Position numbers and translations under genes: made by a program. The notes under the pieces were generated by a model that worked only from the letters and a program-made list of their open reading frames with translations, made no database searches and was not told the origin of the DNA. From positions 1 through 39,474 of the forward strand of contig CAMDRP010000017.1 of NCBI GenBank assembly GCA_945906965.1: 39,474 nt of DNA, written 5' to 3'. This DNA is from Opitutus sp. GAS368 (lineage in GTDB: Bacteria; Verrucomicrobiota; Verrucomicrobiia; Opitutales; Opitutaceae). Below, piece by piece: positions 16,509 to 22,639 of this stretch (position 1 is the first letter of the stretch; each line of letters begins with the position of its first letter).

Positions 16509-16835
16509 TCAACCGACGGGCAGCGAAGAATCTGCGGGATTGCTCGCCGCTTTGTAGAAAAGCACGGTGTGGCCGACGGCGCCGACGCAGGTGCAGTGAC
16601 CCTGGGTCTCAATCTGCGTGGTGAGTGCGGAACGAGCAGCGCGGTCCGCGTCGCCAACAAAGCGCAGTTTAATGAGATCGTGGGCCCGGAGGGCGCGACT
16701 GAGCTCGGTGAAAAAAGCGGGCGTGAGGCCCTCTTTGCCGACTTTAATGGTCGCTTCGAGTTTCTGGCCGAGGCCGCGGAGCTTGGATTTTTGCGCGCCG
16801 GTGAGGGAAAGGTTTTCCATGTAAGAAAGACGCAT
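16509..16835 (-). CDS. YhbY/CRM-domain RNA-binding protein
   Basis: About 108 residues (or 103 from the second ATG at 16820, MENLSLTG). It is a single CRM domain: LTGAQKSKLRGLGQKLEATIKVGKEGLTPAFFTEL carries the family GKEG loop, and ALRAHDLIKLRFVGD continues the fold. YhbY proteins bind the pre-50S ribosome and assist assembly. The C-terminal tail is longer than usual and ends NPADSSLPVG. It lies 34 bp upstream of the FGase gene on the same strand and 33 bp downstream of the pseudouridine synthase gene. Confidence 0.88.
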   Translation of the reverse strand: MRLSYMENLSLTGAQKSKLRGLGQKLEATIKVGKEGLTPAFFTELSRALRAHDLIKLRFVGDADRAARSALTTQIETQGHCTCVGAVGHTVLFYKAASNPADSSLPVG

Positions 16836-16868
16836 GACAGGCTCGGGCGCCGCTGCAAGCCAGACGAC

Positions 16869-17603
16869 CTAGGCTTCGGAAGCGCCGGCCCCGTCGGCAG
16901 GATTAAAAAAATCGAGCGGCAACACCTGCCATTGACCCGGCGTGAGCGCGCCGAGGTCGAGCGTGCCGAAGTGCGTGCGATGTAGCGCGATCACTTCGTG
17001 GCCTTGGCTGGCGAACATGCGACGAACTTGATGATAACGCCCTTCCGTGAGGGTTAGTTCGGCTTCGCGCATAGAAATCATCGTGAGCCCGGCCGGAGCG
17101 CAGGGCGTTTTTTCCTCGGGCAGCATGAGCGTACCGGTGGCGAATAGAGCGGCAATCTCTGTCGCGCGCGTGGGGCTGAGATTGCTGGCGAGCGTCGCGC
17201 GGTAGCGTTTGGGGATTTTGTGCTTCGGCGAAGTGAGCCGGTGGACGAGCTGGCTTTGGTCGGTGAGGAGAATGAGGCCCGAAGTGTCTTTATCGAGGCG
17301 ACCGATGCTGGTGATGACAGGATTGCGGCGCTGCCAGCGTGCCGGGAGCAGGCTGTAAACGTTGGGCCCTTCGCGGAGTTCGTGGGAGCAGACGAGGCCG
17401 AGGGGTTTATGGAGCAGGAGCAGAAGCCCGTCGGGATGATCTAGGGGTTCGCCGTCGACGAGCACATCGGCCGCATGGGCTTTTTGGGCGGGACCGTCGG
17501 CGGTTTCGCCGCGGATGGTAATGGCGCCCGAATCAATCCAATCGCGAGCTTCGCTCCGGGAGCAGTAACCGAGGTTGGCGAGAAGTTGGTCGAGGCGACG
17601 CAT
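16869..17603 (-). CDS. RsuA-family 16S/23S rRNA pseudouridine synthase
   Basis: 244 residues from the ATG at 17603 (MRRLDQLLANLGYCSR). The frame extends to an ATG at 17690, but those residues run through a palindrome and do not look like protein of this family. The S4 RNA-binding domain is residues 1-50 (LLANLGYCSRSEARDWIDSGAI). The catalytic domain has HKPLGLVCS and GRLDKDTSGLILLT with nucleophile Asp104, followed by KRYRATL and LTEGRYHQVRRMFASQGHEV. Such enzymes isomerise one uridine in ribosomal RNA. The neighbouring YhbY gene fits a ribosome-maturation pair. Which uridine is modified is not readable. Confidence 0.92.
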   Translation of the reverse strand: MRRLDQLLANLGYCSRSEARDWIDSGAITIRGETADGPAQKAHAADVLVDGEPLDHPDGLLLLLHKPLGLVCSHELREGPNVYSLLPARWQRRNPVITSIGRLDKDTSGLILLTDQSQLVHRLTSPKHKIPKRYRATLASNLSPTRATEIAALFATGTLMLPEEKTPCAPAGLTMISMREAELTLTEGRYHQVRRMFASQGHEVIALHRTHFGTLDLGALTPGQWQVLPLDFFNPADGAGASEA

Positions 17604-17681
17604 GTACCGCGTAGTTTGGGCCGTCGCGCACTGGTGGGAAATGTCAAAAATCTGTAAAACAGAAAATTCCGGGCCAGAAAT

Positions 17682-17706
17682 AAGTGTCACCTATTAGGTG
17701 ACACTT
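17682..17706. repeat. Perfect 11-bp inverted repeat, possible REP-like element
   Basis: Arms AAGTGTCACCT (17682-17692) and AGGTGACACTT (17696-17706) are perfect complements around loop ATT, followed by TAATTAG. The element lies in the 187-bp space between the divergent pseudouridine synthase and hydrolase genes. It could be a REP-like mobile hairpin or a regulator site; only one copy is in the window. Confidence 0.6.
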
Positions 17707-18979: not shown

Positions 18980-20695
18980 ATGTCAGGGCGTTTTGGGATG
19001 GGTAAGTCTCAGCGCGTTAAGCCAAAAAATTTTATGTCACTCTGGGAATACAAGATGATCACGAGCGGCCGAGGCGGATTCGCCTCGCCTGCGCTCATGG
19101 AGAAATTTCTGAACGATCTCGGCAAAGAAGATTGGGAGATCGTTTCGTTCCAAATTCAGCCGGATAATATCCTGGCTTTTAACGGTCTCGCGCGCCGCAC
19201 GACGCAGCGTGACTGGACCTTACAGGACGCCGCCGCGGCCGCGGCTAAACTCGAAGCGGATAAACTGCGCGCCGAGTTTGAATCGAAATTTAAAAATGCG
19301 ACCTCGAGCGCGTCGACGACCGGAACGGATGAGGGGTCGGATCCGACGCTAGCCGACAAGGCCGCGCCCGAAGATGGTTTCCGCAAGCCGCGTGACACTG
19401 AGCGCGATCACGATCCTGAGGCCCACGAGGAAGAACAGGCGAAGGATGAGTGGGACAAGTTGGGCGAAGAGGATGAATTGCCGTCGTTTTTCGATGCGAT
19501 GAAACCGCACATGCGTCGCAATCAGCGCGGCCCAGGCATGTCGGTGGGCGTGGATTTTCTCGCGAAAAAATGGGACTTCAGTGACGCGGATATTATCGGA
19601 GCGCTGCGCGAATGTGGCTTTACGATGCCCGACGACGAAGACTCCGCGCCGGCTTACGTTGAGTACGACGGCGATGTTTATTGGGTAAACATCAACCGCC
19701 GCGGCGAACTCTGGATCAACACAAAGGAGAAGCCGCGTCCGGTGTTTCGCTCGGTCAAGGCCACGCCTTATGCGGCACCCGAGGCCGAGGGTTCGGCCCC
19801 GGCGCATGCGCAACCTCAAGCCCTCGCAACTCAGCGCGATCCGCTCGCGGATGCGCCGGCGCGCCGCCCCGAGGCTCCGGTTTTTGTGCCGAAGCCACGT
19901 GAGACCTCGGCCGCAAAGCCGGTGGCTGAACCGATGTTTCCGATCGAGGGCGCACCTGCGCCTGCGACCACACCCGCCGCGCTGGCGGGTGGACCGCTCG
20001 CGCAAGGCCCGGAGTTACTCGACAACGTTCGTCCGCTCATGCGCCGCAATCGTCGCGGCCCTGGCGGCTCGGGTAGTTTACCGTTCCTGGCGCGCGGCCT
20101 GCGTTGTTCGGATGCCGATTTGATGGCGGGCTTTGCGACGCTCGGGCTCGTCTTGCCGCCCGTGCCGACCGACAAACCTATTTTTGTCGAGATCGGCGAG
20201 CACGTGTGGTGGCTCAATCAGGATTCACGCGGCGGCGTGTGGATCAACGGCCGCGACAAATTAGCCAGCGACACTCCGGCGGCGGACGCGACTCCGAAGA
20301 CGACTACGCCGCCGGAATTTGTCGCTCCGGTCGCGGCGATTCCGCCTCCGCCGGCTCCCGCTAATGTGTTGAGCGGGGTGCGACTGTTGTTGAAGGAGAC
20401 GAAGACGGGCGGCTTTGCTGGCAAACTCGACCGTGTCGCCGAAAATCTCGAAAAATCGCCTGAAGAATTACTCGCCGTGCTTCTCAATGCGGGCCTCAAA
20501 GTCCCCGAAAAAGCCCGCGAGAAGCCGGTTTTTGTCGAGCACGCGGGTGAAATTTTCTGGCTCAACCTCAACGCCAAAGAAGAACTCTGGATCAATGCCA
20601 AGGCCTCGAAATTCACGGCGGCCGAAACCAAGGAAACGGCGTCGGCTGATGGCGATAAAAAAGGGGTTCGACGTCCGCGGCCAAAGAAGAAGTAA
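18980..20695 (+). CDS. Uncharacterised protein with DUF4177-like N-terminus and three copies of a ~80-residue domain
   Basis: 571 residues, no signal peptide. Residues ~21-73 (LWEYKMITSG..., LNDLGKEDWEIVSF) resemble a DUF4177-type domain. An Ala/Lys/Glu helix (84-105) and an acidic linker (130-166) follow. Three related domains come next: 167-249, 344-427 and 462-544. Copies 1 and 2 begin with a basic patch (MRRNQRGPG, MRRNRRGPGG), then a helical part with SDAD and G(F/L)x(M/L)P. All copies end in a strand pair, (Y/F)VE...(Y/W/F)W(V/L)N...(E/V)LWIN or close to it. The helices plus a two-strand wing suggest a winged-helix fold, and the Arg patch nucleic-acid binding; both are inference. Pro/Ala linkers separate the domains and the tail is basic (RRPRPKKK). 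Alternative starts are at 18998 and 19034. I do not recognise the family. Confidence 0.85.
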   Translation: MSGRFGMGKSQRVKPKNFMSLWEYKMITSGRGGFASPALMEKFLNDLGKEDWEIVSFQIQPDNILAFNGLARRTTQRDWTLQDAAAAAAKLEADKLRAEFESKFKNATSSASTTGTDEGSDPTLADKAAPEDGFRKPRDTERDHDPEAHEEEQAKDEWDKLGEEDELPSFFDAMKPHMRRNQRGPGMSVGVDFLAKKWDFSDADIIGALRECGFTMPDDEDSAPAYVEYDGDVYWVNINRRGELWINTKEKPRPVFRSVKATPYAAPEAEGSAPAHAQPQALATQRDPLADAPARRPEAPVFVPKPRETSAAKPVAEPMFPIEGAPAPATTPAALAGGPLAQGPELLDNVRPLMRRNRRGPGGSGSLPFLARGLRCSDADLMAGFATLGLVLPPVPTDKPIFVEIGEHVWWLNQDSRGGVWINGRDKLASDTPAADATPKTTTPPEFVAPVAAIPPPPAPANVLSGVRLLLKETKTGGFAGKLDRVAENLEKSPEELLAVLLNAGLKVPEKAREKPVFVEHAGEIFWLNLNAKEELWINAKASKFTAAETKETASADGDKKGVRRPRPKKK

Positions 20696-20726: not shown

Positions 20727-21437
20727 ATGTTAAACGTCGTCGACCTCACCAAATCATTTACCGCACCCGAAGGCGGGCGGGTGGAGATTGTCCGCGTGCC
20801 GCGGTTTGAACTCGCGGCGGGCGAGCAGCGGGCGTTGCGCGGCGAGAGCGGCTCGGGTAAGACGACGTTTCTTCATTTGATCGCGGGGATTCTCGCGGCG
20901 GATGGTGGGCGCGCTGAAATTGACGGCGTGGATATGGCGGCGTTGCCCGAAGCCAAACGCGATCGACTCCGCGCGGACAAACTGGGGTATATTTTCCAGA
21001 CGTTTAATCTCCTCCAAGGGTACACCGTTTTAGAAAACGTGTTGCTCGGGATGAGTTTCGGGCCCCGCGGCGTGGACCGGGCGCATGCAGTTGAGGTGCT
21101 TGGGCGCGTTGGATTGGCGCATCGCCTTGGACATTTCCCACGGCAGCTCTCCACCGGACAACAGCAGCGTGTGGCCGTGGCGCGGGCCTTGGCCAATCGC
21201 CCCAAACTGGTGCTGGCCGATGAACCCACGGGTAATCTTGACCGCGTGAGTTCGAAAGAGGCGCTCGCGCTGATCCGCGAAGTTTGCCGTGAAAACGGGG
21301 CGGCGCTGTTGCTGGTGAGCCACGACGACGGGGTGCTCGCGCAATTTGAAGGCATGCAAGATTTCGCGGTGATCAACGAGGCCAAGACGGTGCGAGGTGG
21401 GGTCACCCCGCCCACAACAACGGAGGCGGCAAAATGA
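20727..21437 (+). CDS. ABC transporter ATP-binding protein, LolD/MacB type
   Basis: 236 residues. Walker A is GESGSGKT (39-46), the Q-loop is YIFQTFNLLQGYTVLENV, the signature is LSTGQQQRVAVARAL (LSTGQ in place of LSGGQ), Walker B is KLVLADEPTGNLD and the switch His is in LLVSHDD. NLLQGYTVLENVLLGM is typical of the LolD/MacB/FtsE group, which powers mechanotransmission or lipoprotein and peptide export rather than solute import. Its stop overlaps the start of the permease by four bases (ATGA), so the two make one transporter. Confidence 0.93.
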   Translation: MLNVVDLTKSFTAPEGGRVEIVRVPRFELAAGEQRALRGESGSGKTTFLHLIAGILAADGGRAEIDGVDMAALPEAKRDRLRADKLGYIFQTFNLLQGYTVLENVLLGMSFGPRGVDRAHAVEVLGRVGLAHRLGHFPRQLSTGQQQRVAVARALANRPKLVLADEPTGNLDRVSSKEALALIREVCRENGAALLLVSHDDGVLAQFEGMQDFAVINEAKTVRGGVTPPTTTEAAK

Positions 21438-22639
21438 CGCTGCCCCTAATCATTTATCGTTCGTTACGGCAGCACGCTCTCTCGACGCTCATCACGGCGG
21501 GCAGCATTGCGCTCGCGTGCGGGTTGCTCATGACCGTGTGGATGGTGAAGACGCAGGCGCAGGCGGCGTTCGTGTCGACTTCGACGGCGTTTGACGCGGT
21601 GCTCGGTGCGCGCGGGTCGAAATTGCAGCTCGTGCTGAATGGAATTTTCCATCTCGAAGCCTCCCCCGGAAATTTGGCTTGGGCTGACTATGAGTTCATC
21701 CGGAAGCATCCGGCGGTGAAGACAGCGATCCCGATTGCGGTGGGTGATAACCTGCGCGGTTACCGGATCGTCGGTACGGTGCCGGAGCTTTTTTCTAAAG
21801 TGGAATATGCGCCCGGCAAAAAATACGAGTTGCGCGCGGGCGGGAAGATTTTCGCCGACAGTGCCCGGGAGGCCGTGGTGGGAAGTTTCGCAGCCGAGCG
21901 GTTGATGTTGAAGATCGGCGACACGTTTCAGCCGTTTCACGGGCTGGCCTTCGATGAGAAAAATCAGCACGAGGAGACCTTTACGGTGACCGGAATTTTG
22001 GCGCCGACGAATACGCCGGCGGACAAGGTCGTTTGGATTCCGATCAAGGGCGTGCAGACGATGAGCGGGCACGACCCCAAGGCGGCGACGGATGTGAGTG
22101 CGGTGCTGATCCAACTGCGCGCGGCGACGGCGGGCTTCATGCTCGATATGATGATCAACAAGCAGGGTAACCGCATGACGCTGGCGTATCCGGTGGGCGC
22201 GATCATGACCGAGCTGTTTGGGAAAATTTCGTGGTTTGATCGCGTGTTGGCACTGGTCGCCTATCTCGTCGCGTTGGTCGCGGCGGGTTCGGTGTTGGCG
22301 AGCATTTATAATTCGATGAGCGCGCGGCAGCGGGATCTCGCGATCTTGCGGGCGCTGGGGGCGCGGCGACGGACAATTTTCGGGGCGGTTGTGGCGGAGG
22401 CGGCGTGCATCGGCGCGCTCGGCTCGGCGGCGGGATTTGGCATTTATTTCGCATTGATGGCGGGCGTGGCCGAAGTGATCCGCGCGCAGACAGGTGTGGT
22501 CTTGAATGTCACGGCGGGGCACGCGGTGCTTTGGGTGTGCCCGCTGGTGATGACGGCGCTGTGTGCGTTGGGCGGCGCGGTGCCGGCGTTGAAGGCGTAT
22601 CGGACGCCGGTGGCGGAGACGTTGGCGCCGGTTTCTTAA
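21434..22639 (+). CDS. ABC transporter permease, MacB/FtsX (type VII) type
   Basis: 401 residues. One N-terminal membrane helix (LSTLITAGSIALACGLLMTVWMV) is followed by a large periplasmic MacB_PCD-like domain (about 45-260). Three C-terminal helices then follow, with the FtsX signature SMSARQRDLAILRALGARRRTIFGAVVAEA between the first two; it ends AYRTPVAETLAP. This four-helix topology matches MacB and LolC/E. Translationally coupled to the preceding ATPase. The substrate is unknown, and no membrane-fusion protein or TolC partner is next to it. Confidence 0.92.
   Translation: MTLPLIIYRSLRQHALSTLITAGSIALACGLLMTVWMVKTQAQAAFVSTSTAFDAVLGARGSKLQLVLNGIFHLEASPGNLAWADYEFIRKHPAVKTAIPIAVGDNLRGYRIVGTVPELFSKVEYAPGKKYELRAGGKIFADSAREAVVGSFAAERLMLKIGDTFQPFHGLAFDEKNQHEETFTVTGILAPTNTPADKVVWIPIKGVQTMSGHDPKAATDVSAVLIQLRAATAGFMLDMMINKQGNRMTLAYPVGAIMTELFGKISWFDRVLALVAYLVALVAAGSVLASIYNSMSARQRDLAILRALGARRRTIFGAVVAEAACIGALGSAAGFGIYFALMAGVAEVIRAQTGVVLNVTAGHAVLWVCPLVMTALCALGGAVPALKAYRTPVAETLAPVS

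What the first reader, a model, noticed from the sequence alone, without database searches (positions are those of the whole stretch)
18980..20695. Unrecognised protein with three copies of a ~80-residue putative winged-helix domain
The sequence shows three related segments (19478-19726, 20009-20260, 20363-20611). Copies 1 and 2 have a basic MRRN(Q/R)RGPG patch, and all three end in a tryptophan-rich strand pair ending in (L/V)WIN. A DUF4177-like N-terminus precedes them. The basic patch and wing-like hairpin suggest nucleic-acid binding in tandem. Copy 3 has lost the Arg patch (LLKETKTGGF), so the copies may have diverged in role. I know no named family with this layout. The next two genes are an ABC ATPase-permease pair.
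Basis: partly seen in the sequence, partly recalled or inferred. Interest (0 to 1): 0.6.

Follow-up and report, generated by a model that had tools for sequence, protein, structure and literature searches.

The report
Opitutaceae three-winged-helix protein family
This gene encodes a previously unnamed protein, found in most sampled members of one bacterial family, that carries three copies of a small module predicted to be a winged helix; it probably grips RNA or DNA, but its job is unknown.

Summary
One protein (most likely start 19034, stop 20695; 553 aa) has a DUF4177-like N-terminus, a predicted helix, three related ~85-residue copies on low-confidence linkers, and a K/R-rich tail. I found no Pfam, NCBIfam or PADLOC family that covers the copies. 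Full-length copies were seen only in the window's family (Opitutaceae by record titles): 205 of 252 family genomes match, 179 of these with exactly three matches; six matches outside are weak and partial. The copies group by position, so the triplication predates the split of the 17 loci sampled.

The ABC pair is not a constant partner: it follows the gene in the window's genus-like group but in 0 of 57 other loci. The canonical recognition helix is acidic; positive charge lies in the helix-1/strand-1 loop and around the wing, so classical MarR-like reading looks unlikely. I favour a multivalent RNA-binding protein (0.45), on indirect evidence; a DNA role and a protein scaffold remain open. 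A new, apparently lineage-restricted family built on a known fold.

The parts
19034..20695 (+). whole gene, 553 codons plus stop; conserved start is M19 of the first-reader ORF at 18980
   Evidence: start shared by homologues; 32 of 57 genomes (own included) carry a match
19034..19207 (+). N-terminal DUF4177-like alpha/beta domain
   Evidence: Pfam PF13783 22.6 bits and 26.4 bits; 60 of 61 members at E<=1; model strand-helix-strand-strand, block pLDDT 67-79; VIA rows for residues 1-58 are ribosomal chains at Z 5.1-5.8, weak
19220..19303 (+). Ala/Glu/Lys-rich predicted helix (residues 63-90)
   Evidence: AlphaFold2 full-length model
19481..19744 (+). winged-helix copy 1, the most conserved copy (mean identity 0.75)
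20009..20272 (+). winged-helix copy 2 (mean identity 0.60)
   Evidence: (pLDDT 93.7 with 120 sequences)
20360..20620 (+). winged-helix copy 3; weaker basic patch (mean identity 0.62)
20621..20692 (+). C-terminal tail rich in Lys/Arg (KKGVRRPRPKKK)
   Evidence: at least 5 K/R in the last 15 residues in 58 of 77 homologues

Best explanation
A nucleic-acid-binding protein of the Opitutaceae, most likely an RNA-binding one. Shown by computation: one gene, three winged-helix copies of one origin that keep their order, a DUF4177-like N-terminal domain, low-confidence linkers and a K/R-rich tail. Inferred: the three small domains act as beads on a string, each offering a basic surface made of the end of helix 1, the following loop (RRNxRGPGxSG) and the wing (WLNxxxRGxLWIN), while the acidic helix 3 faces away; together with the tail and the N-terminal domain they give avidity for folded RNA (rRNA, mRNA or a small RNA). 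Copy 1 is the conserved anchor; copy 3 has drifted, at least in the window's relatives.
For: Fold: pLDDT 93.7, helix-strand-helix-helix-strand-strand order. Mean net charge for copies 1/2/3, 77 sequences each: patch +3.0/+3.7/+1.3, wing region +2.7/+1.2/+2.5, helix 3 -2.7/-1.6/-1.0. The Pfam family that most copies resemble is IF2_N, 19 of 120 copies (best E 0.0027); next are Reg_prop 8 and DUF3606 7. hhalign with 15 IF2_N sequences gives 52% for all copies, 78% copy 1, 19% copy 2, 66% copy 3; 20 column-shuffled controls of the all-copy alignment reach at most 6%. PMC2848206 (section 6 read) names IF2_N among RNA-binding domains with a circularly permuted winged-helix fold. All 22 listed VIA rows for residues 1-58 come from ribosomes or ribosome-assembly particles, Z 5.1-5.8; one is titled RPS24, and that the rest are the same protein eS24 is my inference. 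A small DUF4177 protein, YjzH, was among B. subtilis proteins recovered with RNA (PMC12456014, section 10 read). Within 4.5 kb upstream lie an RNA pseudouridine synthase (25 of 55 other loci, 7 of 9 genus-like loci) and a CRS1/YhbY protein (15 of 55, 7 of 9).
Against: All of it is indirect. The IF2_N likeness covers only 25-30 columns of the helix-turn-helix core, is weak in copy 2, and IF2_N is said to be circularly permuted whereas this model has the classical order. VIA Z values (<=6.4) may mean only a common arrangement; Foldseek has no match at E<=0.001 and its top rows are not winged helices but chains of Ragulator, TRAPP and others. The eS24 rows are many entries of few proteins, and the N-domain model is of middling confidence. 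The wing window I used (HMM 69-88) runs past the hairpin and may inflate its charge. The RNA-related neighbours are on the opposite strand, and the alpha/beta hydrolase is about as frequent. Codon adaptation is at the 51st percentile of 204 background ORFs, so no sign of ribosomal-protein-like abundance. Copy 1 as a whole is net acidic (-2.7), and copy 3 has little patch charge.
Confidence: 0.45

Rival explanations
1. A DNA-binding protein: a nucleoid-associated or chromosome-organising protein, or a transcription regulator, whose three winged helices bind DNA through wing and loop.
For: The VIA rows of the single-copy model are mainly DNA-binding MarR/ArsR regulators and Z-alpha domains, Z<=5.6; several DNA-binding modules plus an Ala/Pro-rich linker and K/R tail is a layout seen in nucleoid proteins (recalled, no call).
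Against: Recognition helix net acidic in all three copies; codon adaptation only average; no neighbour gene is constant, the most frequent being within 4.5 kb in 38 of 80 loci. Operator sites were not searched for.
Confidence: 0.25
2. A protein-protein scaffold: winged helices used as interaction modules (as in ScpB-type kite proteins, ESCRT-II and proteasome subunits), with the conserved Trp/Asn hairpin as the contact.
For: Proteasome rows (Z 5.3-5.4), ScpB (Z 5.2-5.4) and ESCRT-II (Z 5.3-5.5) rows; acidic helix 3; copy 1, overall acidic, is the most conserved copy.
Against: The conserved basic RRNxRG patch in copies 1 and 2 and the K/R tail need another purpose; no constant partner gene beside it (largest neighbour cluster 28 of 80 loci).
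Confidence: 0.2
3. A regulator or accessory of the adjacent ABC transporter pair (20727-22639).
For: On the same strand just downstream in the window; among the 8 genus-like loci with at least 2.5 kb of flank the permease is there in 8 and the ATPase in 7 (in the eighth, L052, my ORF call for the ATPase starts inside the gene's end).
Against: Found there in 0 of 57 other loci with enough flank. L129, a distant locus with too little flank to be counted, does have the pair, and L099 has an ATPase homologue on the other strand.
Confidence: 0.03

Closest known systems
IF2_N (PF04760), N-terminal region of translation initiation factor IF-2
   Same: helix-turn-helix core LAxxLgxxxxxLxxxLxxxGLxV; hhalign 52% overall, 78/19/66% for copies 1/2/3
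   Different: similarity stops after 25-30 columns; the Trp-rich hairpin has no counterpart in it; the IF2_N match of this genome lies in another gene (G000:C94)
OST-HTH/LOTUS (PF12872)
   Same: winged-helix domain predicted to bind RNA that can occur in tandem (PMC2848206; abstract, passages and section 6 seen)
   Different: hhalign 0.15% against 6 sequences; no helix-2/helix-3 insert in the model
MarR/ArsR-type and Z-alpha winged helices
   Same: fold order; VIA Z up to 6.4
   Different: acidic helix 3; three copies in one chain
DUF4177 (PF13783), e.g. B. subtilis YjzH
   Same: N-terminal domain, WEYK...LG..(E/D)WEI pattern
   Different: YjzH is 7.7 kDa; here the domain heads a 553-aa protein
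ScpB-type kite proteins
   Same: ScpB rows at VIA Z 5.2-5.4; more than one winged helix per chain (recalled)
   Different: ScpB membership was not tested by profile; layout of three spaced copies

Membership tests
winged helix-turn-helix fold | alpha1-beta1-alpha2-alpha3-beta2-beta3 order with a C-terminal hairpin wing | tested here: met
   AlphaFold2 model of copy 2, pLDDT 93.7; same order in all three copies of the full-length model. A prediction, not a solved structure
winged helix-turn-helix fold | significant structural match to a solved winged helix | tested here: inconclusive
   VIA rows are mainly winged helices but Z<=6.4; Foldseek best E 0.17 and 0.12, top rows not winged helices
MarR/ArsR regulators | DNA read by helix 3 in a dimer (recalled) | tested here: inconclusive
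   helix 3 is net acidic on average in all copies; dimerisation not testable
OST-HTH (PF12872) | profile similarity | tested here: not met
   not among the Pfam families shown for 120 copies (25 of 27 shown); hhalign probability 0.15% against 6 OST-HTH sequences of relatives
OST-HTH (PF12872) | helical insert between helix 2 and helix 3 with a Ghxph motif (PMC2848206) | tested here: not met
   only four residues separate helix 26-32 from helix 37-46 in the model
IF2_N (PF04760) | profile similarity over the domain | tested here: inconclusive
   52% over 27 columns; copies 1/2/3 78/19/66% over 25-30 columns; shuffled controls <=6%; best Pfam E of a copy 0.0027
IF2_N (PF04760) | N-terminal part of an IF-2 GTPase | tested here: not met
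   no GTPase match in the protein (E<=10); this genome's IF2_N match lies in another contig
DUF4177 (PF13783) | Pfam score over 25 bits | tested here: met
   26.4 bits in the genome search, but 22.6 for the whole protein; 60 of 61 members match at E<=1
anti-phage defence (PADLOC) | match to a PADLOC model | tested here: not met
   window protein: 0 families at E<=0.1

The most novel reading that the evidence does not exclude
A clade-specific RNA-binding or ribosome-linked factor that arose once in the Opitutaceae, built from a DUF4177 domain and a triplicated winged helix that binds RNA through the helix-1 loop and wing instead of helix 3: a new RNA-binding domain family.
Probability: 0.35. 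Interest if true: 0.65.

Novelty: new variant of a known kind. Interest (0 to 1): 0.42.

Why it matters
A protein present in 205 of 252 genomes of one bacterial family, with a nearly fixed three-domain layout and not seen at full length outside it in the genomes searched, is a candidate for clade-specific biology that annotation would leave as hypothetical or DUF4177. If the copies bind RNA as proposed, they add a winged-helix module that binds by a face other than the recognition helix. It would also give DUF4177, a domain that rings in 7 of 14 control genomes and has no assigned function in Pfam, a context in which to be tested.

Tried and rejected
ABC-pair partnership: rejected as a general rule on synteny. 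A viral home: 38 pattern hits in viral contigs, none a relative. OST-HTH membership: not met. Matches outside the family: six genomes (G357, G630, G820, G842, G844, G864) gave hits at E 3.3e-4 to 7e-4 covering 38-57 of 93 positions and none past position 68, so without the Trp hairpin; four of them gave a further, weaker hit. The alignments I saw (the printout was cut within the last three of nine proteins) look unrelated, except that by my reading L171 is the start of IF-2, so I counted none as a relative. PDB sequence search of the copies: best E 0.2; of the N-domain: best E 0.23. Foldseek of both models: no match at E<=0.001. High expression: codon adaptation does not support it. Promoter and terminator scan: 1 promoter-like site on the minus strand (shuffles 0.4) and 3 terminator-like sites (shuffles 3.2), close to chance. 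PHROGs was not scanned.

Print: searches for DUF4177 (6 papers; passages of two and one section of one seen), Opitutaceae + winged helix (0), Opitutus terrae + RNA-binding protein (2; abstract, passages and section 6 of one seen), Verrucomicrobia + lineage-specific + winged helix-turn-helix (1, listing only), Opitutaceae + hypothetical protein + nucleoid-associated (0) showed me no description of this protein; four of the six DUF4177 papers were seen in the listing only, and most subscription journals are not held. The OST-HTH paper lists an Opitutus terrae protein; I did not identify which one it is.

Limits: the genome-contig scan kept the best 80 of 183 relatives, so the named set leans to closer relatives and 103 were not seen. 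That scan used two N-terminal patterns, so copies without that N-terminus outside the phylum would be missed. In the phylum and order searches at most 13 first-look candidates a genome were scored, so distant relatives may have been lost. For the structure jobs I gave 117 of 237 copies (after an 80% identity filter) and 60 of 77 full-length homologues, plus the window's own. The tree used 17 of the 77 three-copy loci.

Full report
What is there. The ORF at 18980-20695 most likely starts at 19034, since homologues begin at the same Met (most often M(S/A)LWEYK). The 553-aa product has, in order, a DUF4177-like domain (residues 1-58), a predicted helix (63-90), a linker rich in Asp and Glu by eye, three related copies with two long Ala/Pro-rich linkers between them, and a Lys/Arg-rich tail (at least 5 K/R in the last 15 residues in 58 of 77 homologues).

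The copies are real repeats. Pairwise BLASTP E-values are 2e-23, 3e-16 and 4e-16; local scores lie 25-31 standard deviations above 1000 shuffles. A repeat HMM finds three copies in 77 of 80 named loci and two in the other three. In 252 genomes of the window's family, 205 match (136 of 165 at >=90% completeness and <=5% contamination). By my hand count from that table, 179 of the 205 show exactly three matches, 15 two, 6 one, 4 four and 1 six. Some low counts are broken contigs, but G186, a single-contig genome listed as 100% complete, has two. Twenty-nine of the 165 good genomes have no match, so the gene seems dispensable over evolutionary time.

Spread. Full-length copies were seen only in the window's family. 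In 387 genomes across the phylum, 29 of 30 positives belong to the family; in 372 of the order, 60 of 65. The six others are weak partial hits. The record titles of the 80 named loci say Opitutaceae, Opitutae, Opitutia, Opitutus, Cephaloticoccus, Oleiharenicola or Candidatus Didemnitutus, or only Verrucomicrobia and its spellings; I did not place each by taxonomy. No relative was found in viral contigs.

History. In a tree of 17 diverse loci the copies separate by position, with ultrafast bootstrap 99, 92 and 99: the triplication came before those loci split. Copy 1 is the most constrained (mean identity 0.75 against 0.60 and 0.62). A strict pattern for the arginine patch fits 76 of 77 first copies, 68 of 77 second copies and 0 of 77 third copies; in another set with more distant members, 4 of 29 third copies keep N(K/R)RG. 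Loss in copy 3 is the simpler reading, but I did not reconstruct ancestral states.

Structure. With 120 copies as alignment, AlphaFold2 gives copy 2 a pLDDT of 93.7 and helix 4-12, strand 22-25, helix 26-32, helix 37-46, and strands 62-64, 67-73 and 79-85. The full-length model (mean pLDDT 71.9) repeats this in all three copies with low-confidence linkers. VIA-align rows are mainly winged helices (MarR, ArsR, Z-alpha) at Z up to 5.6 for the copy and 6.4 in the full model. These values alone would not prove the fold: Foldseek found nothing at E<=0.001 and ranked Ragulator, TRAPP and other chains first. The case for the winged helix rests on the model's confidence and element order.

How it may work. 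Helix 3, the reading helix of DNA-binding winged helices, is net acidic on average in all copies, while the helix-1/strand-1 loop and the wing region are basic. That argues for binding by the loop and wing. RNA is favoured over DNA by weak hints: a resemblance to the helix-turn-helix core of IF2_N in copies 1 and 3, hardly in copy 2; ribosomal-protein rows for the N-domain; recovery of the DUF4177 protein YjzH with RNA in B. subtilis (PMC12456014, section 10 read); and RNA-modification and RNA-binding genes nearby in a part of the loci. None is decisive. That method recovers many proteins in bulk, and the section I read does not test YjzH singly. Another paper places a Streptomyces DUF4177 gene near a CRP/FNR regulator and a WhiB gene (PMC13118837, passages seen), which would rather point to gene regulation. 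Codon adaptation (0.490, 51st percentile of 204 ORFs of at least 200 aa from 18 stretches, 10 of 214 dropped as likely shadow ORFs; 16 ribosomal proteins average 0.696) gives no sign of high abundance.

Surroundings. Upstream on the same strand is an alpha/beta hydrolase; further up, on the other strand, an S4/pseudouridine synthase, a CRS1/YhbY protein and an N-formylglutamate amidohydrolase; downstream an ABC ATPase and FtsX/MacB-like permease, then a TonB receptor gene. With enough flank, the hydrolase is near in 9 of 9 genus-like and 22 of 55 other loci; the ATPase follows on the same strand in 7 of 8 and 0 of 57, the permease in 8 of 8 and 0 of 57. The genus-like group of ten loci was chosen by me from high identity to the window.

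Verdict. A new, apparently lineage-restricted protein family built on a known fold.

Noticed in passing
window 20727-22639: LolD/MacB-like ABC ATPase and FtsX/MacB_PCD permease pair, substrate unknown; among loci with enough flank its place after this gene is confined to the window's genus-like group (L129, with little flank, also has it).
   Followed up: partly
window 16509-17690 (-): CRS1/YhbY RNA-binding protein next to an S4-domain RNA pseudouridine synthase; both recur upstream of this gene in part of the family.
   Followed up: partly
L110:472-4332, L029:8364-11033: Long ORFs (1286 and 889 aa) reach upstream of the conserved start of the homologue; probably open upstream sequence in GC-rich DNA, but fusions were not excluded.
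   Followed up: no
G517; genus g2; G186: Departures from three matches: G517 has six (7% listed contamination); 4 of 6 genus g2 genomes have two, and in the one I read (G013, L032) copy 3 is the missing one; complete genome G186 has two.
   Followed up: no
genera g9, g13, g14, g19, g54 of the family: None of the 205 matching genomes belongs to these genera, which would allow a comparison of genomes with and without the gene.
   Followed up: no
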